Program-made: the position numbers and the translations under genes
Source: an uncultured Nitrospira sp.
Lineage (GTDB): Bacteria > Nitrospirota > Nitrospiria > Nitrospirales > Nitrospiraceae
Direction: 5' to 3'
Length of the DNA: 64,000 bases
NCBI GenBank assembly: GCA_902500995.1
Contig: CABVSR010000010.1
Coordinates: 1 to 64,000, forward strand
Notes under the pieces: generated by a model
What the model was told of the DNA's origin: nothing
Database searches by the model: none
The model's input: only the letters and a program-made list of their open reading frames with translations
Part shown: one piece after another, positions 16,227 through 58,453 of the stretch
Layout of the letters: every line of letters begins with the position of its first letter
Position numbering within the stretch: position 1 is the stretch's first letter

Positions 16227-16553
16227 GGGCAGCCGGCAGCTCGATCAACCCCACTCCATACCACCACATCGTCATCTAGCCTCGGCCATTCGTCCCGGTC
16301 CTCTTGTCGCAGGGCATCGATGTTGCGATGTCATGGGCATGTCCGGAATCCTGTCGATTCTCATCGTCCCCGTTCACCATTCCTACAAAAGACAGTCATT
16401 TCAGCTGCGTCTCACGACCGCTCCGTCTGTTTCACAATCGATCAGGAAACTAAACATGTCAGTTTTTGTCATCCAAACGTCTTAGGAGAAGAGAGTAAGT
16501 ATAAATCGTTCATCGAAATCGCCGGTCAGTCAGTTTACGGAGTGGTGAGGGAG
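16227..16553 (+). promoter_or_regulatory. AT-rich leader upstream of the NRPS-PKS operon
   Basis: This 327-bp gap holds no gene. Its second half (about 16375-16520) is distinctly AT-richer than its surroundings, as expected for the promoter of the biosynthetic operon. TTGTCA (16466-16471) and TATAAA (16500-16505) are present but 28 bp apart, so they do not form a standard promoter together. No convincing Fur box or inverted repeat was found by eye. The NRPS1 frame is open through part of this leader (from 16320), but that stretch lacks NRPS-like sequence. Confidence 0.4.
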
Positions 16554-19500
16554 ATGCACACAACCGTCACGGATCTGCTTCAGTCTCGCGCGTCGGCCAC
16601 TCCGACTCGGCATGCGTATAGCTACCTGCTCGATGGTGAGGCCGATGAGGCGCGGTTGGACTACGGCGAGCTGGATCGCCGCGCCAGGGCTATTGCCGCC
16701 TGGCTGCGATCGGCCGGGGCGGCGGGGGATCGCGCGTTGTTGCTGTACCCGCCCGGTCTGGACTACATCGCCGCGTTCTTCGGTTGTCTCTATGCCGGTG
16801 TCGTCGCCGTGCCGGCCTATCCGCCCCAACGCCGGCGTGGTCTGCCGCGGGTCCATGCGATCCTCGCGGATGCCCGGCCGCGGTTTGCCCTCTCGACCAC
16901 CTCTCTACGTAGCATGCTCGCGCCTGTCACCGGCGAAGACGGAAGCCCTGCCGGGCTCACCGATGTGCACTGGCTGACCACCGACCAGCTCGAGCCCGGG
17001 CTCGAAGCAACCTGGACGCGACCGCCACTGACTGCGGAGAGCCTGGCTTTTCTCCAGTACACCTCCGGCTCGACCGGAAACCCCAAAGGCGTCAAGGTGT
17101 CCCACGGGAACCTGCTGCAGAACCAGCGAGCCATTCAGGACGCCTTCGGTCATACGTCGGACGACGTCATCGTGGGGTGGCTGCCGCTGTATCACGACAT
17201 GGGATTGATCGGCAACGTGCTGCAGCCGCTGTATGTGGGTGCGCCCTGCATTTTGATGTCGCCGGTGCATTTTCTTCAGAAGCCCGCCCGGTGGTTGTCC
17301 GCCATTTCCACATATCGCGCGACCACCAGCGGCGGCCCGAACTTTTCCTACGAGCTCTGTGTCAAGCAGGTGTCCGATGCGCAGCGCGACGAGTTGGACC
17401 TTCGTTCCTGGACGCTCGCCTTTAATGGTGCTGAACCGGTGCGTGCTTCGACGATCGACCGCTTCTCCGAGCGGTTCCGTGCGTGCGGCTTCCGGCGGCA
17501 GGCCTTTTATCCTTGTTACGGGTTGGCGGAAGCGACGCTGTTGGTCACGAGCGGAACCAAAGGTGCGGACCCGGTGGTTTATTCAACCGGCCACGTGTCT
17601 GGCTCCCCGGCGGCACATTCACCCTCCACCACGCGGGACAACCGGATCGTAGGCTGTGGCGAGGCGAGGGGCGGGCAATCGATTCGCATCGTCCATCCTG
17701 ATTCCGGCCTGCCTTGCGATGATGGCCAGGAGGGAGAAATCTGGGTCAGTGGTCCCTCCGTGGCACAGGGCTACTGGCAACGGGAAGAAGAGTCCCGGGC
17801 GACATTCCACGCAAGCTTGGCCGCAAGCGGAAAAGGACCGTTTCTCAGGACGGGAGACCTGGGTGTTCTCCGGGACGGCGAGTTGTTCGTCACGGGCCGT
17901 CTCAAGGATCTGATCATCATCCGCGGCCGCAATCATTATCCCCACGATCTCGAACGCACCGTGGAGGACTGTCATCCTGCCCTGCGAGCCGGCGGGTGCG
18001 CGGCCTTCTCCGTGACGGAAAAAGAGGACGAGCAGCTGGTCGTCGTGCAAGAGGTCGAGCCGCGCGCCAAAACCCTCGACGTGCCTGCAATCGCCGATGC
18101 CATTCGCCAGGCGGTGGCCCGGCTTCATGAGGTGTCGGTGTTCGCCGTCGTCCTCATCAAGGCCGGTCAACTGCCCAAAACCTCCAGCGGAAAGGTTCAG
18201 CGCGGTCTCTGCCGAACGCAATTTCTCGCGCGATCGCTGGAGACGGTCGGCGAATCGATGCTGCCGGACTCGCCGGACACACCGGCCTCGACAGGCGACC
18301 ATCCTGCGTGTGAACCGGGCGGTGACGATGAATTAGCCGCCGCAATCGGCGGGATATGGGCCCAGGTCTTGAACCGGCCGGCGGTCGGGCCGCAGGAGGA
18401 TTTTTTTGCGCTCGGCGGAGACTCTCTCCGCGGCCTGCAGATGGTCGCGCGCATTCAGGAGGTGCGCGGCCTCGATGTGCCGCTGGAGATGTTGTTCGAA
18501 CATCCCACGCTCGCCGGCTTTACGTCGTTGGTTTCTTCTCTAGCCCCTGCCTCGGCAAGTACTACCTCACCGGAGCCAATCCACGCGCTGTCGCGAGATG
18601 GCTTGCTGCCGCTCTCATTTTCCCAGCAGCGGTTTTGGTTCTTCGAACAGCTGTCGGCAGGAAGCGCCATCAACAACATTCCAGTGGCGTTGCGACTGCG
18701 CGGACCGCTCGACGTGGAGGCGTTGCGCAAGGCGGTCAATGCGATCGTTCAACGCCATGAGATCCTCCGGGCCTCGTTCGGCTTGGTCGAAGGCCGCCCG
18801 GTCCACGTCATCGCGCCGGAATTGCGGCTCGCATTGGAGATTGAAGAGCCGGGCGCGGGCAGCCCGGAGCAGCGTGAAGAAGCGATCGTCCGCGCGGTGC
18901 GAACGGAAGCCAGCCGGCCCTTCGATCTCGTGGCCGGTCCGCTGATCCGTGGCCGGTTGTTTCGGCTTGCGGACAATGAGCATCTGCTGTCGGTGACCCT
19001 GCATCACATCATCGCCGACGGCCAGTCGATGGAGATCATCCGGCGAGAACTGTTCGCGTTGTACAGCGCGTTGACGGAGGGACAAGCTGTCTCGCTGCCG
19101 GCATTGCCACTTCATTACATCGATGTCGCGGCCTGGCAACGCGGGCAGGCCGGTGAAGTCGCTGAGAGACGGCACCTCGAATACTGGCGTGCCCGCCTGG
19201 AAGGACTCCCGCCGCTGCTCACATTGCCCTGGGACTATTCGCGCCCCGCACTGCAAGGGCACCGTGGCGCGCGCTACGCGTGGAAGATCTCGCCGGCGAT
19301 CACCGAAGGGCTTCAAGAGACGGGCAGGCGTTACCGGGTGACACCGTTCATGCTGCTGCTGTCCGCCTTCGGCATCCTGCTGTCCCGGTATAGCCGCCAG
19401 TCCGACTTGTGCATCGGCACACCCGTGGCGAATCGAACAGGCCGAGATATCGAGAAGCTGGTCGGCTGTTTCGTCAACACGGTGGCCTTGAGACTGGACC

Positions 19501-22262
19501 TGAACGGCGATCCCTCATTTCCCGACTTCCTGCGGCAGGTGCGAACCACCGTGCTTGAGGCGCAGGCCCATCAGGAACTCCCTTTCGAACGGCTGGTGGA
19601 GGAGTTGGGTGTGGCGAGGGACCTCGGGCATACCCCGTTGTTTCAGGTCATGTTCGTGTTGGAAGAGGCGCCGTCGGAGGCGACTCGGCTTGCGGACCTG
19701 GAGGTCTCCCGCCTGCCGGTCAGCACTGGCACGTCGGTCTTCGACCTGACACTCGAGATGGTCCGACAGCGTGACGGGAGCCTGGATGCCGTTTTCGAAT
19801 ACAGCACCGATCTGTTTGCCGAACCGACCATCGCGCGTCTGGCCGGGCACCTGCAGGAGCTACTCACACAACTCGTCGCGTCCCCTGAGGCGCGACCGAG
19901 CGAGTGGCAGCTGCTTCCGGTCGCGGAACAGGCGGCGGCACTGGCCGACGGCAGAGGCTCCCGCAGGCCGGCCTTTGAAGAGGTGTGCTTGCATCGACTG
20001 ATCGAAGCGCAAGCGAACCGCGTTCCAGAGGCTATCGCGCTCGAAGGAGCCACGCAGGCGCTCACCTATGACGAGCTCAACCGCAGAGCCAATCAGCTGG
20101 CACGGTATCTGCGCCGGCAGGGAATCGCGCCAGATAGGCCGGTGGGGTTCTGCGTCGATCGTTCGCCGGACATGGCCGTCGGGCTGCTGGGATGCCTGAA
20201 GGCGGGCGCGGTCTACGTACCGATGGATCCTTCGTACCCGGTCGAGCGCAAAGCGGCGATGCTTCGTGATGCGCAACCATCGCTGTTACTGACGCAAGGC
20301 CGGCATGTGTCCTCGCTGCCTTCGGACGCCCCGCCGGCCTTCCTGCTCGATGACCAGTGGGAAGCCGCGGCCGCTCTGCCGGACCACAACCTGTCCACCA
20401 GCCCCCATCCCGACCACCTGGCCTATCTGTTGTACACGTCCGGCACGACGGGACAACCCAAGGGCATCGGCATCTCCCATCGTGCCCTGTCCAATCATGG
20501 GCAGGCCACGAGGGAAGCCTATAGCCTGACATCAGCGGATCGAGTCCTGCAGTTTGCGTCCGTCAGTTTCGACGTGGCGGCGGAAGAATGTTTCCCGACC
20601 TGGCTGGCAGGCGGCACCGTCGTGCTGCGCTCCCATGAGCCGGTGCCGGCCTATGATGATTTCAGCCGCTTCCTGCGTGAACGGCGGGTCACGGTCGTCA
20701 ATCTACCGACGCCCTATTGGGCAGGCTGGATCGAGGAAATGGAACGCGCCGCCTCCGCGCTTCCGCCGGACCTCAGATTGACGGTCGTCGGTAGCGAAAA
20801 GGCCCAGGTGGACGATCTGCGCCGGTGGAGCCGCATGGCGGGCGACTGCGCCTGGTGCAACGCGTACGGGCCGACCGAAGCCACGATCACCGCGAGCATC
20901 TATCGTCCGGATCACGATTCGTCGCCGGCGACATTGCGAACGGTGCCGATCGGCCGGCCGATCGCCAATGTCGAGCTCTACGTCCTCGATGCCCACCTTC
21001 AACCGGTGCCGGTCGGCGTCACCGGAGAACTCCATATCGGTGGAGCGGGGTTGGCGCGCGGCTACCATCAGTTACCTGCGCTCACGGCCGAACGGTTCCT
21101 GCCCCATCCCTTCAGTCTCGATCGCGGTGCGCGACTCTACCGGACGGGTGATCTGGCCAGGCGCCGTGCCGACGGCCTCGTGGAATTTCTCGGGCGCGCA
21201 GATGATCAGATCAAGATTCGCGGCTTCCGCGTGGAGCTGCAAGACATCGAAAGCCACGTCCGCCTCCATCCGCAGGTGAAAGATGCGCGAGTCTGGCTGG
21301 AGGCGGACGCCGGTGAAGACTGGGAGATGTGCCTGACAGAAATGAGCGGCGGCGATCGTGAGGAGATGATGCGCGACCTCGAACGGCTGTCGGTAGCCGA
21401 AGCGCAATGGCTCTACGACCTGGAATCCGATCACGAGCAACGGAGGAAAACGGTGATTCAGCGCAAACCGGAATTCGAAGTGTTCCTCAAGATCAACAAG
21501 GATGAGTTTCTCACGCCTCCGCGCGCCAACCAGCGCAACTGGTTGCTGCGGCGCGCCCTCGACGAATTCTCCGACGATCTGCTGGCGCTCGACGACGTCT
21601 CGAAGCGGTTCGTCTCGGGATCGGATCGGGCCGACATCGCGCGCACCTGGACGGACAGCCACGCGGAATATCGCCCTTCGGAATTGATCATCGAAGGGCA
21701 GCAGGTCATGCAGGATTGGGAAGCGCCCTTGATGAAGGCCATGGCCGGCATCGTCACCGAGCAGCGGGGCGATGTGCTCGAAGTCGGCTTCGGCATGGGG
21801 ATCTCGGCCTCCTACATTCAAGCGGGCCGGCCGAAATCCCATACCATCATCGAATGCAATCGTGAAGTCATGCAGGCGTTCGGAGAGTGGGCCGAGCGGT
21901 ATCGCGGCCGCGATATCCGGCTCGTGCAAGGCCGCTGGCAAGACGTGGTGGATGATATCGGCCTGTTCGACGGCGTGTTTTTCGATACCTATCCGGCCAG
22001 CGAGGCGGAGTTCGAGGAGTCCGTGATCAACAGCATCAATTTCGCCGAGGGCTTCGTACCTGTTGCGGCGAAGCTGCTGCGGCCAGGCGGCGTGTTTACG
22101 TACTACAGCAACGAGATCGATTCCTTCAGCCGCCGCCATCAGCGTTATCTGCTGTCGCATTTCAGTTCATTTACGCTGAGTGTCGTCCGCTCGCTGCTGC
22201 CGCCGGACGATTGCCATTACTGGTGGGCGGACTCGATGGTGTTGGTCAAGGCGGTGAAGTGA
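16554..22262 (+). CDS. NRPS1: FAAL-ACP-C-A(core)-methyltransferase, A domain incomplete
   Basis: This 1,902-aa starter synthetase begins with a fatty acyl-AMP ligase (about 1-585; YTSGSTGNPKG near 168, RGRNHYPHDLE late), so a fatty acid is activated and loaded on the ACP (Ser624 in GGDSL). A condensation domain follows (about 685-1125; HHIIADG 817-823). An adenylation core (about 1140-1590) has YTSGTTGQPKG near 1294 and a substrate pocket starting at Asp1340 (FDVAAEECF); the code reads roughly D-V-E-V-V-G-A-I-T and I do not assign it confidently. After motif A8 (IKIRGFRVEL) comes a SAM methyltransferase (about 1600-1900; EVGFGMG at 1743) resembling guanidinoacetate/RMT2-type enzymes. The protein ends there, without A9-A10 or PCP; these lie in the next gene. 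ATG 16554 is chosen because upstream sequence is not FAAL-like. Confidence 0.92.
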   Translation: MHTTVTDLLQSRASATPTRHAYSYLLDGEADEARLDYGELDRRARAIAAWLRSAGAAGDRALLLYPPGLDYIAAFFGCLYAGVVAVPAYPPQRRRGLPRVHAILADARPRFALSTTSLRSMLAPVTGEDGSPAGLTDVHWLTTDQLEPGLEATWTRPPLTAESLAFLQYTSGSTGNPKGVKVSHGNLLQNQRAIQDAFGHTSDDVIVGWLPLYHDMGLIGNVLQPLYVGAPCILMSPVHFLQKPARWLSAISTYRATTSGGPNFSYELCVKQVSDAQRDELDLRSWTLAFNGAEPVRASTIDRFSERFRACGFRRQAFYPCYGLAEATLLVTSGTKGADPVVYSTGHVSGSPAAHSPSTTRDNRIVGCGEARGGQSIRIVHPDSGLPCDDGQEGEIWVSGPSVAQGYWQREEESRATFHASLAASGKGPFLRTGDLGVLRDGELFVTGRLKDLIIIRGRNHYPHDLERTVEDCHPALRAGGCAAFSVTEKEDEQLVVVQEVEPRAKTLDVPAIADAIRQAVARLHEVSVFAVVLIKAGQLPKTSSGKVQRGLCRTQFLARSLETVGESMLPDSPDTPASTGDHPACEPGGDDELAAAIGGIWAQVLNRPAVGPQEDFFALGGDSLRGLQMVARIQEVRGLDVPLEMLFEHPTLAGFTSLVSSLAPASASTTSPEPIHALSRDGLLPLSFSQQRFWFFEQLSAGSAINNIPVALRLRGPLDVEALRKAVNAIVQRHEILRASFGLVEGRPVHVIAPELRLALEIEEPGAGSPEQREEAIVRAVRTEASRPFDLVAGPLIRGRLFRLADNEHLLSVTLHHIIADGQSMEIIRRELFALYSALTEGQAVSLPALPLHYIDVAAWQRGQAGEVAERRHLEYWRARLEGLPPLLTLPWDYSRPALQGHRGARYAWKISPAITEGLQETGRRYRVTPFMLLLSAFGILLSRYSRQSDLCIGTPVANRTGRDIEKLVGCFVNTVALRLDLNGDPSFPDFLRQVRTTVLEAQAHQELPFERLVEELGVARDLGHTPLFQVMFVLEEAPSEATRLADLEVSRLPVSTGTSVFDLTLEMVRQRDGSLDAVFEYSTDLFAEPTIARLAGHLQELLTQLVASPEARPSEWQLLPVAEQAAALADGRGSRRPAFEEVCLHRLIEAQANRVPEAIALEGATQALTYDELNRRANQLARYLRRQGIAPDRPVGFCVDRSPDMAVGLLGCLKAGAVYVPMDPSYPVERKAAMLRDAQPSLLLTQGRHVSSLPSDAPPAFLLDDQWEAAAALPDHNLSTSPHPDHLAYLLYTSGTTGQPKGIGISHRALSNHGQATREAYSLTSADRVLQFASVSFDVAAEECFPTWLAGGTVVLRSHEPVPAYDDFSRFLRERRVTVVNLPTPYWAGWIEEMERAASALPPDLRLTVVGSEKAQVDDLRRWSRMAGDCAWCNAYGPTEATITASIYRPDHDSSPATLRTVPIGRPIANVELYVLDAHLQPVPVGVTGELHIGGAGLARGYHQLPALTAERFLPHPFSLDRGARLYRTGDLARRRADGLVEFLGRADDQIKIRGFRVELQDIESHVRLHPQVKDARVWLEADAGEDWEMCLTEMSGGDREEMMRDLERLSVAEAQWLYDLESDHEQRRKTVIQRKPEFEVFLKINKDEFLTPPRANQRNWLLRRALDEFSDDLLALDDVSKRFVSGSDRADIARTWTDSHAEYRPSELIIEGQQVMQDWEAPLMKAMAGIVTEQRGDVLEVGFGMGISASYIQAGRPKSHTIIECNREVMQAFGEWAERYRGRDIRLVQGRWQDVVDDIGLFDGVFFDTYPASEAEFEESVINSINFAEGFVPVAAKLLRPGGVFTYYSNEIDSFSRRHQRYLLSHFSSFTLSVVRSLLPPDDCHYWWADSMVLVKAVK

Positions 22263-22263
22263 C

Positions 22264-22911
22264 ATGCCGGATCACGCGCCACGCCTTCAACGGCTCAGCG
22301 AATCCCACCGCCGCTTGCTCCGGCTCCGCCTGACGAGGCACCAGCGCGCCGGGGAGGCCCGCTTGGTCGGCTATGTCGTGCCCCGAGAGACCCAGGCCCT
22401 CACTGGGTCGGTCTTGCGCGAATTCCTCTCGCAGCGAATCCCGGACTACATGGTCCCGAGCCGCTGGATCTTCCTGGAGACCTGGCCGACGACGACGCGC
22501 GGCAAGGTCGATCGCAAGGCCTTGCAGGGGCTGCTGCGATCCGCGCCGGATGCCCGGCCTGAGCGGGCGCTGCCGCGGGACGAGCGCGAGCGCGCCGTGG
22601 CGGCGATCTGGGAAGCCGTGCTGGGCGTGCGGGACATCGGTCTGCACGACAACTTCTTCGATCTCGGCGGGCATTCGTTGCTGTTGCCCAAAATCCTCAC
22701 GGAACTCCGGGCCGTCACCACGCGCGACCTCTCGATGGTGGACCTGTTTCGTTATCCCACGGTCCATACCCTGGCCGCGGCAATGGGGGAGGGCTTGCCG
22801 GCCGCCGCCGTTCAACAGGCCCCGAACCAACAGATGAAAGCCACCCGGCAAGCGGCGGTGCGCCGGTTGAAACAACGTCGTGCCCAGAACAGGTCATCGA
22901 GGAGCGAATGA
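22264..22911 (+). CDS. stand-alone adenylation C-terminal subdomain + PCP
   Basis: The 215-aa protein starts 1 bp after the NRPS1 stop, in a different frame. After a short basic leader (LSESHRRLLRLRL) it contains exactly what NRPS1 lacks: the A-domain lid (RLVGYVVP, PDYMVPSRWIFLE), motif A10 with the catalytic lysine K81 (RGKVDRKAL), then a peptidyl carrier domain with the phosphopantetheine Ser138 (DLGGHSLLL). The C-terminus is Gln/Arg/Lys-rich. If translated as drawn, it must complete the NRPS1 A domain in trans. AAGGCGGTG upstream could act as ribosome-binding site and the stop overlaps the PKS start (ATGA). The alternative is a one-base frameshift, natural or technical, in an originally continuous gene. 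Confidence 0.88.
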   Translation: MPDHAPRLQRLSESHRRLLRLRLTRHQRAGEARLVGYVVPRETQALTGSVLREFLSQRIPDYMVPSRWIFLETWPTTTRGKVDRKALQGLLRSAPDARPERALPRDERERAVAAIWEAVLGVRDIGLHDNFFDLGGHSLLLPKILTELRAVTTRDLSMVDLFRYPTVHTLAAAMGEGLPAAAVQQAPNQQMKATRQAAVRRLKQRRAQNRSSRSE

Positions 22912-25900
22912 ATCGGACGGAGTCGGACTCAGACATGATCGATTCGCGTGACGGATTGGACATCGCCGTCATCGGCATGGCCGGCCGGTTTCCCGGCGCA
23001 CCAGACATCGAGACCTTCTGGCGCAACCTCTGCGCGGGGCAAGAGTCGATCGCAATACTGACGGCTCAACAATTGTCGGAGGCGGGCGTCGAGCGGCAGA
23101 CGGCTGAGCGCCCGAATTATGTGAAGGCCCGCGCCATCCTCGACGGCATCGAGCTGTTCGACGCGCCGCTCTTCGGCATGACTCCGCGCGAAGCCGAGAT
23201 GACCGATCCCCAGCAGCGCCTTCTGCTCGAGTGCGCCTGGGAGACGTTCGATCGCGCCGGATACGATCCCACCCGATACCCGGGTTCGATTGGAGTGTAT
23301 GCCGGCTCCAGCACGAGCGGCTACCTCTACCAGTTGTTTCCCCGCCGGGTGTTGCTGCAAACGCCGGCCGAGATGTCGGCGATGTTAGGGGTGGAGAAAG
23401 ACTCGCTCGCGACGAGACTGTCCTACAAGCTGAACCTGCGCGGCCCCAGCCTGGCCGTTCAGACCGCCTGCTCCACGTCGCTGGTCGCGGTTCACCTGGC
23501 CTGCCAGGCCTTGCTGAGCGGCGAGTGCGACATGGCCCTCGCGGGCGGGGTGTCCATCACGGTGCCGCAAACCGTCGGCTACCTCTATCAGGAAGGCGGC
23601 ATCGTTTCTCCCGATGGGCATTGCCGGGCGTTCGACGCAAAAGCCGAAGGCACGGTCGGCGGAAGCGGAGTGGGGCTCGTGTTGCTCAAGCGGCTACAGG
23701 ACGCCGTGGCCGAGGGGGATCACATTCTGGCCGTCGTCAAAGGCTCCGCCGTCAACAACGATGGATCGTCGAAGGTCGGCTATACGGCACCGGGTGTCGA
23801 AGGCCAGGCGCGCGTGATCCAAGCCGCGCATGTGGCGGCCGGCGTGGAAGCCGATTCGATGACGTATATCGAAGCGCATGGGACCGGCACGCCGATGGGA
23901 GACCCGATCGAGGTGGCGGGACTCACGGAGGCCTTTCGCGCTTCTACGGACCGCAAGGGTTTTTGCGCGCTCGGCTCGGTGAAAACCAACATCGGCCACC
24001 TCGATGCCGCCGCCGGGATCGCGGGCCTCATCAAGACGATCCTGTCCCTCGTTCATCGCCAGATTCCCGCCAGCCTGCACTATACCGCTCCCAATCCCGC
24101 CATCGAGTTTGCCGCGACGCCGTTTTATGTCAATCAGACCTTGCGCGCATGGTCGGGGAATAGGCCCTTGCGGGCAGGCGTGAGTTCATTCGGTCTGGGC
24201 GGCACCAACGCGCACGTCGTCCTCGAAGAGGCGCCGGTTGCTCCCGCCGAAGCGGCACCAGACGGCTCCCGGCACCGGCTGTTGCTACTCTCGGCCCGTT
24301 CCAAGGAAGCCGTAGACCAGGCGGCCGAACGGCTGGCCTCGTCGTTGGCTGCAACGCCCGAGATCGATCTGGATGACGTGGCCTACACGCTTCAGGAAGG
24401 GCGGCGGCCGCTGCCCCACCGCCGTTGGGTGGTGGCCAAGACGGCGGCAGAGGCTTCTCAACGACTCACCGGCCCCCCGGTCTTCTCCGGCGTCTCAGGT
24501 CCGGTCGTCGAAGCCAGGCAGGTCACCTTCATGTTCTCAGGCCAGGGCTCGCAGTACGCACAGATGGGGCGGTCCCTCTACGAGCATGAGCCCGCGTTCA
24601 GACAACAGGTGGATCATTGCGCCGTATTGTTGACACCGCACATCGGGCGGGACATCCGAAACATTCTATTTCCCGGCGGCGCGGGCGAGTCGGAACTCAT
24701 TGACCGCACGGCCCTGACGCAACCGGCGCTGTTTGTCCTGGAATATGCGCTCGCGCGCACCTGGATGAGTTGGGGCGTCGTTCCCGCCGCCATGATCGGC
24801 CACAGCATCGGCGAATATGTCGCGGCCTGCCTATCCGGATTGTTCTCCTTGGATGATGCGCTTGCGCTCGTGTCGATGCGGGGCCGGCTCATGCAGGACA
24901 TGCCGTGCGGAGGCATATCGGCTGTTCCATTGACGGAAGCGGAACTGCGGCCGTTGCTCCCGGCAGGCTTGGACCTCGCGGCGGTCAACGCTCCCGCGCA
25001 ATGCGTGGTTTCCGGCCCGCACGAACTCCTCACGCCGTTTGAAGACCACCTGGCAAAGCGCGGCATCAAGGCTCGCCGCCTGTCCACCTCGCATGCGTTT
25101 CATTCCGCCATGATGGAACCGATGCTTGCCCGCTTCTCGACATTTCTCTCAGGGATCACCTTCCATGACGTGCGGATTCCCTGGATCTCCAACCTGACCG
25201 GCACCTGGATCAGCCGCGACCAGGCAGCCGACCCCTCCTATTGGGTCCGCCACCTCCGCGAGACGGTGCGATTCTCGGCCGGAGTCCGCCTGTTGCTCGC
25301 AGGACGAAACACGGCGCTCTTGGAAGTCGGGCCGGGCAGGACCCTGCAGAGCCTGGCTCTACGCCATCCCGAATCAGGTGAGACGGTGGTCTTGGCTTCC
25401 ATGGCAGGGCGGGATCAGGACGAACGATCGTCTCTCTTGATGACCCTCGGCTCCCTCTGGGGTGTCGGAGTGCCGGTCGATTGGAAAGGGTTGCAGGGTG
25501 CACGTCACTGCCGGCGGGTTCCGCTGCCGGCCTATCCCTTCGAACGGCAACGGTATTGGCTCGAGCCGCAACAGGACCAGTCTCAGCCCCCTTCGCTTGA
25601 TCGGCGGGCCGATCCGTCCCGCTGGTTGTATCAGCCATCATGGAAACGCTCGGCGCTCCCGACGCAGGCACCAGCAGGGCCGGCAGGGCATTGGTTGCTG
25701 TTCGTGGATCATCCGGAATTCGAAACCCTTTTGCATACGCAACTGACGCCTCTGGTCGAGTCGGTCACCACCGTCTGTCCCGGCCAAACATTTTCTCGTC
25801 AGGAGGCCGGCCGTTATCAGCTCCGCCCCGATTCGCGTGACGATCACGAGACCTTGCGGCGGGAGCTGGCCGAGCGCGGCTTCACTCCGACACATCTGCT

Positions 25901-27455
25901 GCAGGCCTGGATGCTTGACGGCAGGTGGAGCCACCTCACCGAACCGGCGCGGATCCGGGCGGCGCAGGAGCGGGGTTTTTTGCATTTGACCTTGCTCGCC
26001 CAAGTGTTCGAAGCATCGCGTGACCATCGGCCGTCGATTCTCGTGCTGACCCAGGGACTGCACGACATCACCGGCGAAGAGCCGTTGCGGCCGGAACGAG
26101 CGACGATCCTCGGCGCGACGTTGGTGCTGCCGCAAGAATATCCGGAACTCCGCTGCCGCCTCATCGATCTGGACCACAGGCTTTGCGAGCCGCCTTGGGC
26201 GGATCGTTGGGGGGCGCGTCTGGTGGCGGAATCGGAGAGTGTCGATCCGGAGCCGGTCGTGGCCTACCGTGGTCCACACCGTTGGGTGAGGGCGTTCGAA
26301 CCGCTGCGGCTCCACGATGAAGGGGCGCCATCATTCGCTTTGCGCGAGCGCGCCGTCTGTCTCATCACCGGCGGCCTGGGCGGAGTCGGCCTGCGCATCG
26401 CCGAACATCTGGTGCGTAGCAGACAGGCGCGTCTGATCCTCGTGGGGCGATCTCAGCCGACAGATGAACAACAAGCGGCCGTCGCTGCGTTGGAACGAAT
26501 CGGCGGTGAGGTGCGCGTCTGCCGGGCCGACGTGGCCGCTGCCGGGCAAATGCAGGCGGTCATTGACGAGGCGCGTCTGCGATTCGGCGCCATCCATGCC
26601 GTGATCCATGCGGCGGGGGTGCCCGGCGGCGGCTTACTGGCGCTGAAAGCCCCGTCATCCGTCTGGGAGGAATTTCGCGCCAAGGTCCAAGGAGCGGCGG
26701 TGCTCGATTCACTGTTCCGGGACGAACCCTTGGACCTATTTCTGTGCTGCTCCTCCCTCACGGCCGTGACCGGGGGGGGCGGGCAGAGCGCCTACTGCGC
26801 GGCCAATCACTACCTCGATGCCTTGGCACAGGCCGGTCGGCGGGCAGGGCGGCGCATGTTGTCCGTGAATTTCGATCGCTGGCGCCACGTCGGCATGGCC
26901 ATCAAGGCGGAAGCCGTCATGCGGACAGTCGGCGCGACGGAATCCGAGATGGACGGCATGAACGAGGCGGAAAGCCGGGAGGTTCTCCGTTGCGTCCTGC
27001 AGAAATCGGATCTGGCGCAAGTGGTGCAGTCCATTCGTGATCTGCCTCGCACCGTTGCCGCTGCGGCCACGTCTGCTGCCTTCACCGAGGCGGGGGGATC
27101 GGACCGGAAGGGAACGACGAAAGCCTCGCCCGCCTCCGCGGCCATTCCCGAAAGTCGTGAAGAATTGGAACGGCAACTCGAGGACCTCTGGCGCCAGGTC
27201 TTGGGACTGGACCAGGTCGGACGGGAACAGGATTTTTTTCAGGCAGGGGGAGAATCCCTCGCGGCCCTGCAGATTCTCAATCGAATTCAAGAGCTCTACC
27301 GGCTGGACGTGCCGTTGCGGGAGTTCTTCGCCGCTCCGACCGTGTCGGGATTGGCTGCCACCATTCGTGCCGCGCAGGCGTCGGGGACGCGCGAGGAAAC
27401 GGCGATTGTGTCCGTCCCTCGCGCAACGAGACGGCTGCGTGGTGTGTCGGCATAG
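22908..27455 (+). CDS. type I polyketide synthase module KS-AT-KR-ACP
   Basis: This 1,515-aa module adds one two-carbon unit. The ketosynthase has the full triad: C188 (TACSTSL), H324 (EAHGTGT) and H364 (KTNIGHL). The acyltransferase has Ser633 (GHSIGE) and HAFH at 729-732, the malonyl-CoA signature. The ketoreductase has TGGLGGVGL (about 1150) and catalytic Tyr1296 (QSAYCAAN); it lacks the LDD motif of B-type enzymes, so stereochemistry is left open. The ACP serine is S1450 (GGESL). No dehydratase or enoylreductase is seen, so a beta-hydroxy unit is expected. Placed after the NRPS1/PCP pair, it would extend an aminoacyl chain to a statine-like beta-hydroxy-gamma-amino acid, if collinear. Confidence 0.95.
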   Translation: MNRTESDSDMIDSRDGLDIAVIGMAGRFPGAPDIETFWRNLCAGQESIAILTAQQLSEAGVERQTAERPNYVKARAILDGIELFDAPLFGMTPREAEMTDPQQRLLLECAWETFDRAGYDPTRYPGSIGVYAGSSTSGYLYQLFPRRVLLQTPAEMSAMLGVEKDSLATRLSYKLNLRGPSLAVQTACSTSLVAVHLACQALLSGECDMALAGGVSITVPQTVGYLYQEGGIVSPDGHCRAFDAKAEGTVGGSGVGLVLLKRLQDAVAEGDHILAVVKGSAVNNDGSSKVGYTAPGVEGQARVIQAAHVAAGVEADSMTYIEAHGTGTPMGDPIEVAGLTEAFRASTDRKGFCALGSVKTNIGHLDAAAGIAGLIKTILSLVHRQIPASLHYTAPNPAIEFAATPFYVNQTLRAWSGNRPLRAGVSSFGLGGTNAHVVLEEAPVAPAEAAPDGSRHRLLLLSARSKEAVDQAAERLASSLAATPEIDLDDVAYTLQEGRRPLPHRRWVVAKTAAEASQRLTGPPVFSGVSGPVVEARQVTFMFSGQGSQYAQMGRSLYEHEPAFRQQVDHCAVLLTPHIGRDIRNILFPGGAGESELIDRTALTQPALFVLEYALARTWMSWGVVPAAMIGHSIGEYVAACLSGLFSLDDALALVSMRGRLMQDMPCGGISAVPLTEAELRPLLPAGLDLAAVNAPAQCVVSGPHELLTPFEDHLAKRGIKARRLSTSHAFHSAMMEPMLARFSTFLSGITFHDVRIPWISNLTGTWISRDQAADPSYWVRHLRETVRFSAGVRLLLAGRNTALLEVGPGRTLQSLALRHPESGETVVLASMAGRDQDERSSLLMTLGSLWGVGVPVDWKGLQGARHCRRVPLPAYPFERQRYWLEPQQDQSQPPSLDRRADPSRWLYQPSWKRSALPTQAPAGPAGHWLLFVDHPEFETLLHTQLTPLVESVTTVCPGQTFSRQEAGRYQLRPDSRDDHETLRRELAERGFTPTHLLQAWMLDGRWSHLTEPARIRAAQERGFLHLTLLAQVFEASRDHRPSILVLTQGLHDITGEEPLRPERATILGATLVLPQEYPELRCRLIDLDHRLCEPPWADRWGARLVAESESVDPEPVVAYRGPHRWVRAFEPLRLHDEGAPSFALRERAVCLITGGLGGVGLRIAEHLVRSRQARLILVGRSQPTDEQQAAVAALERIGGEVRVCRADVAAAGQMQAVIDEARLRFGAIHAVIHAAGVPGGGLLALKAPSSVWEEFRAKVQGAAVLDSLFRDEPLDLFLCCSSLTAVTGGGGQSAYCAANHYLDALAQAGRRAGRRMLSVNFDRWRHVGMAIKAEAVMRTVGATESEMDGMNEAESREVLRCVLQKSDLAQVVQSIRDLPRTVAAAATSAAFTEAGGSDRKGTTKASPASAAIPESREELERQLEDLWRQVLGLDQVGREQDFFQAGGESLAALQILNRIQELYRLDVPLREFFAAPTVSGLAATIRAAQASGTREETAIVSVPRATRRLRGVSA

Positions 27456-29209: not shown

Positions 29210-30616
29210 ATGTCGGTTCACGTGGATGAAATATGGGAAGCCCTGCCGAGCGGTTGTGTGTCCCCGAGGGAATTGTCCGCCGACAATCCCTACCTGGAGC
29301 GCCAGGCCGCGCGAGAATCGAATGCCCGGAGTTACCCGCGGCGATTGCCCTTGGCCCTCAGCAAGGGCAAGGGCCTCTACGTACAGGATACCGAAGGCCG
29401 CACATACATCGACTGCCTTGCCTGCGCGGGCGCGTTGGCCCTGGGACACAATCATCCGGTCGTGGTGGAGGCGATCAACCGGATGTTGCGCGACGGTCTG
29501 CCGTTTCAAACCCTGGATCTGACGACGCCCGTCAAGGACCGGTTCGTGAGCACCCTGTTCGACTCGCTGCCGGCCTCGTTTGCCGAAGGCGCCAAGATCC
29601 AGTTTTGCGGGCCGTCGGGGGCGGATGCCGTCGAAGCCGCCATCAAGCTCGTCAAGATCGCCACGGGCCGCCGGACGGTGCTGGCCTTTCAAGGCGCCTA
29701 TCACGGCATGACGCACGGGACCTTGGGATTGACCGGTCACCTCGGCCCCAAGCAAGCCGTGAGCGGATTGATGGCCGACGTGCACTTCTTACCCTTTCCC
29801 TACGACTATCGTTGCCCCTTCGGAGTGGGCGGCGAACAGGGCGCGCGCCTCTCTTCCGCCTATATCGAACGGCTCTTGGACGACCCCAACAGCGGAGTCG
29901 TGGAACCGGCGGCCATGATTCTCGAAGTGGTGCAGGGAGAAGGCGGAGTGATCCCTGCGGCATCCGGCTGGCTCCGGGAGATCCGGCGTATGACCAAGGA
30001 GCGGGGCATCCCGTTGATCATCGACGAGGTGCAGACCGGTCTCGGGCGAACCGGCCGGTTGTTTGCGTTCGAGCATGCCGACATCGTGCCCGATGTCGTG
30101 GTGCTGTCGAAGGCCATCGGGGGCGGGTTGCCGTTGAGCGTGGTCGTCTATCGGCCCGAGTGGGATCAGTGGACCGCAGGAGCCCATGCCGGCACCTTCC
30201 GCGGCAATCAGCTCGCGATGGCCACCGGGCAGGCGACGATTGAATTCATCATGGCCGAACGCATCGACGCCCATGCGGCCCGCATGGGCGAGCGGCTGTT
30301 CGGCTTGCTCCGCCAAATGCAGAGCGTATCGCGCAGCATCGGCGATGTGCGGGGGCGCGGGTTGATGCTCGGCGTCGAAATCGTCGATCGAGACGAGCCG
30401 AGTGAATTGCCGGACTGCCGCCCTTCGGCTCCGACGCTCGCGTCCACCATCCAACATGAGGCGCTACGGCGGGGACTGATCCTCGAACTCGGCGGCCGCC
30501 ACAACAGCGTTGTTCGTTTTCTGCCGCCCTTGATTGTGACGGAGGAGCAGATCGACACGATTGCCGCCATCTTTGCCGATGCCGTGAAGGCTGCGGAGCA
30601 ACAGCGCGAGCCATGA
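29210..30616 (+). CDS. diaminobutyrate-2-oxoglutarate aminotransferase (PvdH/EctB-like)
   Basis: This class III PLP aminotransferase of 468 aa is predicted to make L-2,4-diaminobutyrate (Dab) from aspartate semialdehyde and glutamate. Visible features are GPSGADAVEAAIKL, YHGMTHGTLGLTG, IIDEVQTGLGRTG and the PLP lysine K301 (VVLSKAIGGGLP), a pattern shared with EctB, PvdH and Dat. ATG 29210 follows GAGGAGGTGAGGAG, a very strong ribosome-binding site. The role is supported independently by three adenylation domains downstream with Dab-type codes. The stop overlaps the acylase start (ATGA). No other ectoine gene is nearby, which argues against an ectoine role. Confidence 0.92.
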   Translation: MSVHVDEIWEALPSGCVSPRELSADNPYLERQAARESNARSYPRRLPLALSKGKGLYVQDTEGRTYIDCLACAGALALGHNHPVVVEAINRMLRDGLPFQTLDLTTPVKDRFVSTLFDSLPASFAEGAKIQFCGPSGADAVEAAIKLVKIATGRRTVLAFQGAYHGMTHGTLGLTGHLGPKQAVSGLMADVHFLPFPYDYRCPFGVGGEQGARLSSAYIERLLDDPNSGVVEPAAMILEVVQGEGGVIPAASGWLREIRRMTKERGIPLIIDEVQTGLGRTGRLFAFEHADIVPDVVVLSKAIGGGLPLSVVVYRPEWDQWTAGAHAGTFRGNQLAMATGQATIEFIMAERIDAHAARMGERLFGLLRQMQSVSRSIGDVRGRGLMLGVEIVDRDEPSELPDCRPSAPTLASTIQHEALRRGLILELGGRHNSVVRFLPPLIVTEEQIDTIAAIFADAVKAAEQQREP

Positions 30617-32997
30617 CGATCGGGCGGCGTCTTTTCGTCGTGGCGGCAGGAACCTTGGCAGCCGGCGCGGCCGCCGTCTGGTGGGTCTGCACCGCCTCAT
30701 TGCCGGTGCGAGACGGCGCCTTGCCGCTGGCCGGATTGCGGGGGCCGGTGACGGTGGCATTCGACGACTACGGCATTCCTGCGATCGCCGCCGAATCCCG
30801 GCTCGATGCCTTTCGCGCGCTTGGATATGTGACGGCGCAGGATCGTCTGTTTCAAATGGATCTGCTTAGGCGCACCAGCGCCGGGCGATTGGCGGAACTT
30901 TTCGGTGAACCGGCCGTGGCCCTGGATGTGCGGCAGCGCCGGTTGGGTTTCTCGAGTGTGGCGGAAGCAGTGGTGCGGCGGCTGCCTGCCGATCAGTCGT
31001 CCGTTTTGGCGGCCTACACCGAGGGAGTGAATCATTTTCTGAGCGAGATGCGGATGCCGCCATTCGAATGCCTGCTGTTGGGGTATCGACCGGCGCGCTG
31101 GGAACCGGCGGACAGTCTGCTGGTGGTGCTGGCGATGTTTCAAATGCTGAACGGGTCGGAGGAGGATGAACGGATGCGCACGGTGATGGCGGCCTCGTTG
31201 CCGGCGGAAGTGACCGCGTTTCTCCTTCCGCCACTCGACCACTACACCGCGCAACTGTTGAGAGGGACGAGTCAACCGACTTCCACGCCTGTCCCGGTGA
31301 AAGCCCTGGCGGCGCTGCGCCGTTCGGGCATGCTCCCTCGCTCGCTGCAGCTGTCGATGGTCCCCAATCGCAAACGGGACATCGGCTCGAATGCCTGGGT
31401 GGTCGGGAAGGCAAAGACGGCCGACGGCCGGGCGATTCTCGCGAACGACATGCATCTCGATGTGGGGGTGCCGAACATCTGGTACCGGATCCACATGCGT
31501 TACGGCCGGGTCGAACTCACGGGCGTCGTCGTGCCGGGCATCCCCGTGGTGATCGCGGGATCGAATGGGTCGCTGTCCTGGGGAATGACGAATGTCGAAG
31601 GAGATTTTTCCGACCTCGTGCGTCTCGACGTCAATCCGGACAATCCGGACGCATATGCCACGCCCGACGGGTGGGAACGGTTCGTGGTTCGTGCTGAGCG
31701 CATCGCCGTGCGTGGTGCCGCCGATCGCACCGTGGAGGTCAAGCGCACGCGCTGGGGACCGGTGACCGATGAACCGTTGATGGGCCGACCGGCGGCGCTC
31801 CGTTGGACCGCGTTGGATCCGGAGGCGGTGGACTTGGGGCTAATGGCGATGGATCAGGCACGTTCGGTGTGGGATGGCATCGCCGTCGCCACCCAGGCCG
31901 GCGCGCCGCCGAACAATGTCCTGCTGGCAGACGCAGCAGGACACATTGCCTGGACCTACATGGGGAAGATTCCCGTCCGGCGCGGGCTCGACGGATCGGT
32001 CAGCCTCTCCTGGGCCGACGGGCGCGCCGGGTGGGACGGGTACGTTCCACCCGATGAGCTCCCACGCTCGATCGATCCGCCGGCGGGCTTCCTTGTCAGC
32101 GCGAACCACCGCATGACGGATGAGCGGTATCCCCACGTGATCGGTCACGCGTTTGCCAATGGCTACCGCGCGTTTCGGATCACACAGCGGCTGCGCGAGC
32201 TGGAACGGGTTCGCGAGCTGGACCTCATGGATCTGCAATTGGATACCACCACGCAACTGTACGAGTTCTACCGCGACTTGCTCCGACAGTTGCTCACCGG
32301 CGACCTCACGGCGCAGCGACCGGACCTGGCCGCCGTGCGCCGGGCCGTCGACGCCTGGAACGGCCGGGCCGACAGCGAAAGCCGCGGATTCGCCTTGTTG
32401 GTCGCGTTTCGGCGCAATCTGGCCGCCTCGGTCTTCGCGCCGTTTCTTCAGGACTGCCGCGAGAAGGAGCCAGGCTTCGTGTTTGACGGAGACCTGGACA
32501 CCCCGCTCAGAAGTCTCCTGACGGAGCAGGCGCCCGAGACGCTTCCCGATCCGTTGCGGTTCAAAAATTGGCAGGCCTTTTTGCTTCAGGAACTGGACAA
32601 CACGGTCAGGTGGCTCGACGAGGAGTACGCGCCATCGGGGATCGATGAACTGGCCTGGGGCAGGGTCAATCGCGTGCGCATGGTTCATCCGCTGAGCGAG
32701 GGCATCCCGGTCGTGGGACGCTGGTTGAACATGCCCGCCGACGCGGGCGCCGGTTGCGGCTCCTGCGTGCGGGTGCTCAGCGGCAGTTTGACCGCCAGCG
32801 AACGGCTGGTGGTGTCTCCCGGCCATGAGGCGGAGGGCTTGTTTCATATGCCGGGCGGCCAGTCCGGTCATCCGCTGTCACCGCATTATCGCGATCAGCA
32901 ACAGAACTGGAGTGAAGGACGCCCGACTCCGTTGCTCCCCGGCCGAGCGCTACAGACCCTGACCTTCACGGCCGGGAACAGCGCGGGGCCATTGTAA
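30613..32997 (+). CDS. periplasmic penicillin-acylase-family amidohydrolase (PvdQ-like)
   Basis: This is an Ntn-hydrolase precursor of 794 aa. The N-terminus has RR followed by a hydrophobic segment (LFVVAAGTLAAGAAAVWW), indicating export or membrane anchoring. Self-cleavage is expected before the nucleophile Ser259 in DIGSNAWVVG, giving a small alpha and a large beta chain. Other family landmarks are YVTAQDRLFQMDLLRR, AGSNGSLSWGMTNV and VSANHRM. In pyoverdine biosynthesis the relative PvdQ removes the fatty-acyl chain from the exported precursor. With a FAAL starter and a PvdE-like exporter in the same operon, deacylation of this pathway's product is the natural hypothesis; acyl-homoserine-lactone hydrolysis is an alternative. 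Confidence 0.9.
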   Translation: MTIGRRLFVVAAGTLAAGAAAVWWVCTASLPVRDGALPLAGLRGPVTVAFDDYGIPAIAAESRLDAFRALGYVTAQDRLFQMDLLRRTSAGRLAELFGEPAVALDVRQRRLGFSSVAEAVVRRLPADQSSVLAAYTEGVNHFLSEMRMPPFECLLLGYRPARWEPADSLLVVLAMFQMLNGSEEDERMRTVMAASLPAEVTAFLLPPLDHYTAQLLRGTSQPTSTPVPVKALAALRRSGMLPRSLQLSMVPNRKRDIGSNAWVVGKAKTADGRAILANDMHLDVGVPNIWYRIHMRYGRVELTGVVVPGIPVVIAGSNGSLSWGMTNVEGDFSDLVRLDVNPDNPDAYATPDGWERFVVRAERIAVRGAADRTVEVKRTRWGPVTDEPLMGRPAALRWTALDPEAVDLGLMAMDQARSVWDGIAVATQAGAPPNNVLLADAAGHIAWTYMGKIPVRRGLDGSVSLSWADGRAGWDGYVPPDELPRSIDPPAGFLVSANHRMTDERYPHVIGHAFANGYRAFRITQRLRELERVRELDLMDLQLDTTTQLYEFYRDLLRQLLTGDLTAQRPDLAAVRRAVDAWNGRADSESRGFALLVAFRRNLAASVFAPFLQDCREKEPGFVFDGDLDTPLRSLLTEQAPETLPDPLRFKNWQAFLLQELDNTVRWLDEEYAPSGIDELAWGRVNRVRMVHPLSEGIPVVGRWLNMPADAGAGCGSCVRVLSGSLTASERLVVSPGHEAEGLFHMPGGQSGHPLSPHYRDQQQNWSEGRPTPLLPGRALQTLTFTAGNSAGPL

Positions 32998-34082: not shown

Positions 34083-35117
34083 ATGACCCACGACAGAGCC
34101 ACATCGTTCGCGCCAAATAGAGAGATGAACGGCACGGCGCATGCTCACGGCGGCTTGGCGGTCGAGCCCCTCACGCCTGACGGCAGCCTCCCTCTGGTGG
34201 TGTCACCGTCGGAAGTCCGGCCACTGGACGAGTATTTCGACGGCGCCCGCCGAATGGCCGAGACCTTGTTGCCGCTTGCCGGCGGCCTGTTGTTCCGCGG
34301 CTTGCCGATCAGGTCGGCAAGCGACTTCGAATCGTTCATCGGCGCGTTTACCTCGTCCCTGGTCTCATACGAATTCGGTTCCACGCCCCGCTCCCGCGTG
34401 CAGCGCCAGGTCTACACCTCGACGGAATATCCCCCGCACCAGCACATTCCGCTGCACAACGAACAGGCTTACACGAGAGAGTGGCCGATGAAGATCTGGT
34501 TCTATTGCGGGCAGGCCGCGGAGCAGGGCGGCTATACGCCTATCGCGGACAGCCGGGAAGTCTACCGGCGCATCCCGGCTCGCATACGCGAACGCTTCGT
34601 GCAGAAACAGATCATGTACGTCCGCAACTACGGCAACGGCTTGGACGTCCCCTGGCAGAAGGTGTTCAACAGTGACGACCCCGCCGTCGTGGAACGGTAT
34701 TGCCATGACAACGGGATCGACTACGAGTGGAAAGCAGACGGTGAGCTGCGCACCAGGCAAGTCGCCCAGGCCATCGCGGTGCATCCGCGAACCGGCCAGA
34801 CGGTCTGGTTCAATCAGGCCCACCTGTTCCACGTCTCGAATCTCGAAGCGGCGGTGCGGGAAGCGCTCCTGGCAGTCGTGGCCGAGGAAGACCTGCCGCG
34901 CAATGCCTGTTACGGAGACGGGAGCCCGATTGAGTCCGATCTGCTGGACGAGATTCGCGACGTCTATCGAAGCCTCGCGGTGCAGTTCGCGTGGCAACAG
35001 GGAGACGTGATGATGCTCGACAACATGCTGGCCGCCCATGGCCGCACGCCCTTTGCTGGGCGCCGGCAGATTCTCGTCGCCATGGCCGAGCCGCGGGGAG
35101 GGGAGACGCCATGCTGA
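34083..35117 (+). CDS. SyrP-like Fe(II)/2-oxoglutarate dioxygenase (putative aspartyl beta-hydroxylase)
   Basis: This TauD-fold enzyme of 344 aa has iron ligands H125 and E127 (LHNEQAY) and distal H319 (AAHGRTPF), with a presumptive 2-oxoglutarate-binding Arg soon after. The sequence [19 protein letters not shown] and [12 protein letters not shown] resembles SyrP, which hydroxylates carrier-bound aspartate. NRPS4 ends with a homologous domain, and two downstream adenylation domains have Asp codes. Hydroxylation of Asp-PCP to beta-hydroxyaspartate is therefore the favoured role. ATG 34083 follows CCGGAGGTACC. The stop overlaps NRPS2 by 7 bp. Confidence 0.88.
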
Positions 35118-41100: not shown

Positions 41101-41617
41101 CGACCCGGATCGCCCGTGGGAGACCGCGGCGCTCAAGTCGGCGCTCGCGCGCACGCTGCCGGAGTATCTGGTGCCCGCGATCATCATCCCGCTGGCGCAG
41201 TTGCCGCTCAGCCCGAACGGGAAGGTGGATCGCAAAGCCTTGCCGGCCCCGGAGTGGGACACACAACGCACGCAGGCCTACGAGGCGCCCGCGACCGAGA
41301 CCGAGGAGCAGCTCGCCGCCATCTGGGCCCAGGTGCTCGGCCTCCCCCAGGTCGGCCGCCACGACAACTTCTTCGAGCTCGGCGGGGATTCGATCACGAG
41401 TCTCCAAGTCTTGGCCAAGGCCCATCGCGAGGGCATTACGCTGACCCCCAAACAACTCTTCGAGCAGCCGACCATCGCCTTGGCGGCATCGGTCGCGGTG
41501 ATGGGGAGCATCGAGGCGATACCGCCGGCCGCCCATGAACAGGATTCCGGGCGGATCGTGGACGTGGACCTGAGCGATGAGGAGATGGAGAACCTCTTGA
41601 AGGAGCTTGAAGCGTAA
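35111..41617 (+). CDS. NRPS2: C-A(Dab)-PCP-C-A(Ser)-PCP
   Basis: This is a two-module synthetase of 2,168 aa. Module 1: C (HHIVCDG 152-158), A with pocket from Asp676 (FDISVW) reading D-I-W-E-L-T-A-D-D, a Dab-type code, and PCP Ser1025. Module 2: C (HHxxxDG at 1232-1238), A whose pocket ([29 protein letters not shown]) reads D-V-W-H-L-S-L-I-D, the classic serine code, and PCP Ser2094. The protein ends in a short acidic helix ([16 protein letters not shown]) like a communication-mediating donor. ATG 35111 has GGGGAGGGGAG upstream. The second A-PCP is encoded by a segment apparently identical to one in NRPS3. There is no epimerase or release domain. Confidence 0.95.
39696..41394 (+). repeat. 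1,699-bp direct repeat, copy 1 (Ser A-PCP cassette in NRPS2)
   Basis: From TGATGGATGCC in the C-A linker to CGAT just after the PCP serine codon, the sequence matches positions 46223-47921. I saw no mismatch in the text compared, and all overlapping reading frames on both strands translate identically. Flanks diverge at once on both sides. The offset between copies is 6,527 bp throughout, so there are no net indels. Confidence 0.9.
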
Positions 41618-58400: not shown

Positions 58401-58453
58401 TCGCCATGGGTGAGATGATCGCCCAATCCGCCGTGCAGTCCATGACATCGTAG
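49481..58453 (+). CDS. NRPS4: C-A(Asp)-PCP-C-A(Dab)-PCP-C-dioxygenase
   Basis: At 2,990 aa this is the largest complete gene. Module 1: C (HHILLDG, H144/H145), A from Asp670 (ADLGNT) reading D-L-T-K-M-G-H-V-G, an aspartate-type code, PCP Ser1020. Module 2: C with HHILTDDW (Asp replaces Gly, H1245/H1246), A from Asp1775 with Dab-type code D-I-W-E-L-T-A-D-D, PCP Ser2122. A third C domain (HHIAADAW, H2314/H2315) is followed not by A-PCP but by a linker and a SyrP-like Fe(II)/2-oxoglutarate dioxygenase (about 2645-2980) with ligands H2767, E2769 and H2961. This fused domain is a candidate aspartyl beta-hydroxylase acting on Asp-PCP in NRPS4 or NRPS5. ATG 49481 has GGAGAG upstream and overlaps NRPS3 by 11 bp. 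Confidence 0.95.

What the first reader, a model, noticed from the sequence alone, without database searches (positions are those of the whole stretch)
21190..22911. Methyltransferase-interrupted adenylation domain split over two genes
NRPS1 contains the A domain through motif A8, then a methyltransferase, then stops. The missing A9-A10 part with the catalytic lysine (K81, RGKVDRKAL) and the PCP are encoded by a separate 215-aa gene one base later in another frame. Methyltransferase insertions between A8 and A9 are known, but an A domain reassembled from two polypeptides with the break right after the insert would be unusual. A one-base change would fuse the two, so a frameshift (natural or assembly error) must be excluded.
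Basis: partly seen in the sequence, partly recalled or inferred. Interest (0 to 1): 0.85.

Follow-up and report, generated by a model that had tools for sequence, protein, structure and literature searches.

The report
Adenylation domain split across two genes
In a Nitrospira peptide-making enzyme the amino-acid-activating part is cut in two right after a built-in methyl-transferring part, and the same cut recurs in four other bacterial phyla, so it is a real and conserved split enzyme of a kind already shown to work in one test-tube study, not a sequencing error.

Summary
Confirmed and real. NRPS1 (FAAL-ACP-C-A-MT) stops right after a methyltransferase that follows motif A8; A9, A10 (Lys81) and the PCP are on a 215-aa protein starting one base later. 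All 11 MT-bearing Nitrospirales genomes found keep the stop-N-ATG junction (four are single-contig assemblies), with purifying selection on both sides. The same break, with other spacings and frames, occurs in Nostoc, Thermodesulfobacteriota, Acidobacteriota and Massilia: neither an assembly error nor one conserved frameshift. Actinobacteria carry a three-gene form (A_N | MT | A_C-PCP). One Nitrospirales relative lost the MT but kept stop and split. The MT is GAMT-like, unlike ordinary NRPS nMT domains, and ends its polypeptide in every relative read. The cut lies inside A_sub, so A_sub must be completed from two chains. This arrangement has been shown to work for corallorazine (Crz1/Crz2, 2024): inactive alone, active when mixed. 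Hence a new variant of a known kind: GAMT-like MT (Crz's MT family not testable here), discrete A_C-PCP protein, three-gene and MT-less forms, cross-phylum conservation. Complementation in Nitrospira is inferred, not shown; the methylated atom is unknown.

The parts
16320..22262 (+). NRPS1: FAAL-ACP-C-A_N-MT, ending after the MT (real start probably ATG 16554, where homologues begin)
20004..21323 (+). A domain of NRPS1: A_core (A1-A7) plus A8 and the first strand/helix of A_sub; nearest solved A domain ApnA A1 (4d4g/4d4i, 44% identity)
21324..21449 (+). variable helical linker between the A8 stub and the MT
21450..22259 (+). GAMT-like methyltransferase; its last predicted beta strand (model residues 745-751 of 752) ends at the protein's C-terminus (..VKAVK)
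22248..22256 (+). Shine-Dalgarno-like AAGGCGGTG, 7 nt before the ORF2 ATG and inside the MT's last codons
   Evidence: sequence; conserved in Nitrospirales
22260..22266 (+). break: TGA stop, one base, ATG start of ORF2; a TGA in ORF2's own frame lies 6 nt before the ATG
22264..22911 (+). ORF2, discrete A_C-PCP protein, 215 aa
22264..22353 (+). ORF2 N-terminal helical stretch with an LS-x-x-x-R-x-LL motif, possible docking helix (model helix 13-30)
22354..22542 (+). ORF2 remainder of A_sub: A9, and A10 with Lys81 (22504-22506)
22594..22782 (+). ORF2 peptidyl carrier protein, Ser138 at 22675-22677
22816..22902 (+). ORF2 C-terminal helix (model residues 185-213), candidate docking element to the following PKS
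22908..27455 (+). PKS KS-AT-KR-ACP; its ATG overlaps the ORF2 stop (ATGA)

Best explanation
This is a natural two-polypeptide adenylation domain with a methyltransferase at the break. NRPS1 supplies A_core, A8, the first part of A_sub and a GAMT-like MT. The co-translated 215-aa ORF2 supplies the rest of A_sub (A9, A10 Lys81) and the PCP. The two chains associate so that the composite A_sub closes on A_core, Lys81 completes adenylation, and the PCP is loaded in trans. The tethered MT then methylates the aminoacyl-S-PCP, most likely on the alpha-amine. NRPS1's C domain joins the FAAL-loaded fatty acyl group to it, and ORF2 carries the product to the PKS. Shown here: gene structure, conservation of break and motifs, purifying selection, MT kinship, absence of a continuous frame. 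Inferred: physical complementation, the methylated atom, docking.
For: The break is identical in all MT-bearing Nitrospirales loci, four of them in single-contig assemblies. The same protein-level break with other spacing and frame occurs in Nostoc L010, Thermodesulfobacteriota L011, Acidobacteriota L012/L053 and Massilia L015/L041. Median dN/dS: A_N 0.14, MT 0.06, ORF2 A_C 0.19, PCP 0.14. A10 Lys is invariant in the 24-row ORF2 alignment. ORF2-type proteins lack the first ~22-27 positions of AMP-binding_C, which the partner chain supplies. MT-less L036 keeps stop, split and an intact ORF2. Actinobacteria L019 and L021 have A_N | MT | A_C-PCP as three overlapping or adjacent genes. In the AlphaFold model A_core is confident (~90) but the A_sub stub is poorly defined without ORF2 (37-58). 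Published assay on the same layout: Crz1.2 shows no turnover alone and near-quantitative turnover with Crz2 (PMC11342130).
Against: No biochemistry or proteomics on this protein pair. The AlphaFold observation rests on a 27-row alignment and has no intact-chain control; folding the two chains as one was not accepted by the tool. Substrate and methylation site are not known. One Streptomyces relative (L017) has lost recognisable A8 and A10, so not every copy need be active. Several of the other-phylum loci are from metagenome bins, whose host assignment may be wrong.
Confidence: 0.85

Rival explanations
1. Programmed +1 frameshifting at AAG-TGA-C, helped by the upstream SD-like AAGGCGGTG as in prfB, makes some or all of the product as one fused chain.
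For: TGAC and the SD-like stretch resemble the prfB layout (established knowledge); a shift inside the last six bases would join the frames.
Against: An ATG directly after the stop is kept in all Nitrospirales read and the SD is well spaced for it; the base after TGA varies (C, G, T); AAG is a poor slippery codon; L036 has TAATG and other phyla have frames 0, +1 and +2 and gaps up to 157 nt.
Confidence: 0.04
2. Sequencing or assembly error, or a recent natural frameshift, in a normally fused gene.
For: One base would fuse the frames at this site in the window.
Against: Same junction in independent assemblies of different species; the break recurs in other phyla; no fused A8-MT-A9 homologue of this MT was found in about 1,760 genomes drawn from the relevant groups.
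Confidence: 0.01
3. The module is decaying: the A domain is dead and the PCP is loaded by another A domain in trans.
For: L017 in Streptomyces shows degenerate A8/A10 around the same MT.
Against: All A motifs, the A10 Lys and the PCP Ser are kept in Nitrospirales, with median dN/dS 0.14-0.19 on A_N and A_C.
Confidence: 0.06
4. Same split enzyme, but the GAMT-like MT methylates a side-chain nitrogen (for example a guanidino group) rather than the alpha-amine. (A variant of the best explanation, not exclusive with the split.)
For: The MT is nearest to GAMT and keeps the Glu (DWE) and Asp (FDTYP) that, from memory, bind guanidinoacetate there; the Nitrospirales A code, about DVENVGAIT-K, resembles the Arg/Tyr/Lys-type ApnA A1 codes DVESIGAIEK and similar.
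Against: The same MT and split occur with unrelated A codes (DAW.., DAS.., DSW..) in L011, L015 and L021, which favours a group common to all amino acids. In corallorazine the split nMT module makes N-methylglycine (PMC11342130), though its MT family is not known to be the same.
Confidence: 0.3

Closest known systems
Corallorazine synthetase Crz1/Crz2 (Corallococcus coralloides; PMC11342130)
   Same: A domain broken right after A8-MT by a stop codon; A9/A10 and the carrier on the next ORF; activity shown only when both proteins are mixed.
   Different: Crz2 is A_C-T-TD (terminal reductase); the paper calls its MT a conventionally embedded nMT with no GAMT kinship stated (its sequence could not be reached here); glycine-specific; no three-gene or MT-less forms reported.
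Interrupted adenylation domains A-M-A (TioS, KtzH, McyA, ColG); structure 5wmm
   Same: MT placed between A8 and A9; Foldseek matches 5wmm over 809 columns spanning A and MT, though with 16.4 A rmsd.
   Different: One continuous polypeptide; conventional NRPS MT families, whereas this MT finds no NRPS MT chain in the PDB by sequence at E up to 1.
Guanidinoacetate N-methyltransferase (3orh, 1xcj)
   Same: MT domain, sequence match over the SAM fold, E 1.5e-28.
   Different: Stand-alone creatine-pathway enzyme of animals; here tethered to an NRPS.
ApnA A1 (anabaenopeptin; 4d4g)
   Same: Closest solved A_core, 44% identity, shared FDVAAEE segment.
   Different: Solved as a continuous A domain; not split.

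Membership tests
NRPS adenylation domain | A_core motifs with complete AA-adenyl-dom profile | tested here: met
   TIGR01733 1-409/409, E 1e-185 for the whole protein
NRPS adenylation domain | A_sub with A10 catalytic lysine on the same polypeptide | tested here: not met
   A9/A10 lie on ORF2
Interrupted A domain (A-M-A) | MT inserted between A8 and A9 | tested here: met
   A8 stub, linker, MT order in sequence and model
Interrupted A domain (A-M-A) | continuous chain resuming at A9 | tested here: not met
   stop after the MT in every relative with this MT between A8 and A9
Split A domain (Crz1/Crz2 type) | stop after A8-MT and A9/A10-PCP on the next ORF | tested here: met
   compared with PMC11342130
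Split A domain (Crz1/Crz2 type) | adenylation only when both proteins are present | not testable with these tools
   needs purified proteins
Split A domain (Crz1/Crz2 type) | same MT family as Crz1 (not known to be required) | not testable with these tools
GAMT-like methyltransferases | sequence kinship to GAMT over the SAM-binding fold | tested here: met
   3orh E 1.5e-28
Conventional NRPS nMT (Methyltransf_12 type) | match to PF08242 | tested here: not met
   no Pfam family for the window MT and PF08242 not among the families matched by the 17 members; the MT inside L019 gene 1 matches PF08242 at 5e-16

The most novel reading that the evidence does not exclude
A distinct, recurrent NRPS device: a GAMT-like MT whose last core strand ends its chain, so it never resumes into A9. 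Placing it between A8 and A9 has produced conserved split A domains in several phyla, three-polypeptide A domains in Actinobacteria, and a natural MT-free split A domain in Nitrospirales; A_sub is assembled by complementation of two chains.
Probability: 0.5. Interest if true: 0.7.

Novelty: new variant of a known kind. Interest (0 to 1): 0.52.

Why it matters
If true, adenylation domains tolerate a stable cut inside the moving A_sub lobe in many lineages, which gives natural, evolution-tested split points for engineering. It also points to a methyltransferase class in NRPS lines that has no Pfam or NCBIfam family of its own, and it warns that annotation tools will report such modules as lacking half an A domain or a PCP. 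The MT-less relative gives a ready test of whether the split needs the MT.

Tried and rejected
Assembly error (rejected by conservation). One conserved frameshift (rejected by differing spacing and frame). Decay (rejected by dN/dS and motifs). Plasmid collection: no relative of the MT. The MT tree backbone is unresolved, so one or several origins of the split cannot be told apart. A first reading of two of the A-code positions was off by one and was corrected against the ApnA A1 alignment.
Full report
WHAT IS THERE. NRPS1 (16320-22262) is FAAL-ACP-C-A followed by a methyltransferase; the frame stops at TGA 22260-22262. One base later ATG 22264 opens a 215-aa protein with the rest of AMP-binding_C (profile positions 24-76) and a PCP, followed by a KS-AT-KR-ACP PKS whose ATG overlaps the ORF2 stop. 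The A domain is complete to the end of TIGR01733 on NRPS1 but lacks A9 and A10 there. A10 Lys81 and PCP Ser138 are on ORF2. Because A8 and the first helix of A_sub are on NRPS1, the cut is inside A_sub: ORF2-type proteins lack only the first ~22-27 positions of AMP-binding_C.

THE BREAK IS REAL. The window is from a Nitrospira genome: its closest relatives are Nitrospira genomes. A scan of 84,980 species genomes with the MT gave 23 loci. The eight from Nitrospirales have NRPS1 ending ..VKAVK, stop, one base, ATG. A phylum draw of 296 genomes found the full MT in 11 Nitrospirales genomes, all with an open frame of about 1,914-2,011 aa ending at the MT, four of them single-contig assemblies; the additional ones show the same junction. 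The frame of ORF2 carries a TGA only 6 nt before its ATG, so it cannot be read from far upstream. Median dN/dS over 45 pairs from 10 genomes is 0.14 for A_N, 0.06 for the MT, 0.19 for A_C and 0.14 for the PCP (synonymous sites are near saturation, so these are rough).

IT RECURS OUTSIDE NITROSPIRA. A_N-MT with a stop, then A_C-PCP on the next ORF, is found in Nostoc L010 (gap 157 nt), Thermodesulfobacteriota L011 (14 nt; A_C-PCP-TE), Acidobacteriota L012 (31 nt) and L053 (18 nt, same frame; A_C-PCP-C..), and Massilia L015/L041 (ATGA overlap). Different frames and spacings rule out one conserved frameshift. In Actinobacteria L019 and L021 the pieces are three genes: A_N, then the MT, then A_C-PCP, with start and stop overlaps. 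L017 has the same order but degenerate A8/A10. In Streptomyces L044/L045 the same MT follows an unbroken A-PCP in one chain. Other relatives are stand-alone genes. In all relatives read the MT is at, or within nine residues of, the end of its polypeptide. No fused A8-MT-A9 version was seen in about 1,760 genomes searched in the relevant groups, most of which lack the MT altogether. Several of these loci come from metagenome bins.

A NATURAL DELETION. Locus L036 (genome G187, one contig, same family as the window) has A_N and linker, then ..LKIHEADSMAAKAVK and a stop: the MT body is gone, its last ten or so residues and the stop remain, and ORF2 (57% identical) starts in an overlapping TAATG and is intact. 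The split therefore outlived the MT in that lineage, which suggests that the split itself works.

WHAT THE MT IS. phmmer against the PDB gives guanidinoacetate N-methyltransferases (3orh, 1.5e-28) and no NRPS methyltransferase. The window MT matches no Pfam or NCBIfam family at the thresholds used, and PF08242, the family matched by the MT inside L019 gene 1, is not among the families matched by 17 members. WE of QQVMQDWE and the Asp of FDTYP are conserved; from memory these positions bind guanidinoacetate in GAMT. Note that QQVMQDWE was one of the search patterns, so its conservation is partly selected for.

STRUCTURE MODELS. In an AlphaFold model of NRPS1 A-MT the A_core is mostly confident, the A_sub stub and linker are not (residues ~401-440 at 37-58), and the MT body (residues ~570 on) is mostly confident with its last strand ending at residue 751 of 752. 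Foldseek places ApnA A1 first and the interrupted A domain 5wmm fifth. ORF2 models as a helix 13-30, the remaining A_sub elements, the PCP, and a C-terminal helix 185-213, with NRPS A-PCP structures as its matches. The low confidence of the stub fits a need for ORF2 but is not proof.

SUBSTRATE AND METHYLATION. The code read from the alignment to ApnA A1 is about DVENVGAIT, with K from ORF2; ApnA A1 codes for Arg, Tyr and Lys are mostly DVE[SD]IG[AGVI][IV][EA]K. L053 has nearly the same code, while L011, L015 and L021 have different ones; these were read by eye. A shared methylation target across different amino acids points to the alpha-amine; GAMT kinship and an Arg-like code leave a side-chain nitrogen open.

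COMPARISON WITH WHAT IS KNOWN. The corallorazine paper reports Crz1 = C1-A1-T1-C2-A2-nMT with the stop right after the nMT and A9/A10 on crz2, no glycine turnover by Crz1.2 alone and almost quantitative turnover with Crz2, and calls it, to the authors' knowledge, the first split yet functional A domain (PMC11342130). Searches of the open paper library found no other report; subscription papers were not searchable. The mode of working is therefore already shown once. What is added here is the cross-phylum conservation, the GAMT-like MT class, the discrete A_C-PCP protein, the three-gene form and the MT-less form.

LIMITS. No experiment on this pair. The MT tree is unresolved at its base, so the number of origins is unknown. 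Whether Crz1's MT belongs to the same class was not testable.

Noticed in passing
39696-41394 and 46223-47921: Two stretches of 1,699 bp inside NRPS modules are 100% identical: recent gene conversion or duplication, or an assembly effect.
   Followed up: no
16554-18242 and 30613-32997: A FAAL start plus a penicillin-amidase-type acylase in one cluster suggests acylated-prodrug logic with later removal of the acyl chain (inference).
   Followed up: no
49445-58453: The last NRPS in the window ends in C-TauD, with a second, separate TauD gene at 34083-35117; more A_C domains lie at G000:C10:61059 and just beyond the window end at 64260, so the cluster appears to continue.
   Followed up: no
L019 2230-7944: An Aeromicrobium NRPS that ends in the split A_N also holds a PF08242-type methyltransferase within the same chain after an earlier A8, so both MT classes occur in one protein.
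   Followed up: partly
L017 7000-9451: Streptomyces relative with the same gene order but no recognisable A8 or A10 lysine: probably an inactive A domain kept around the MT and PCP.
   Followed up: partly
16320-16553: The ORF start at 16320 is probably too early; homologues begin near MHTT at 16554.
   Followed up: partly
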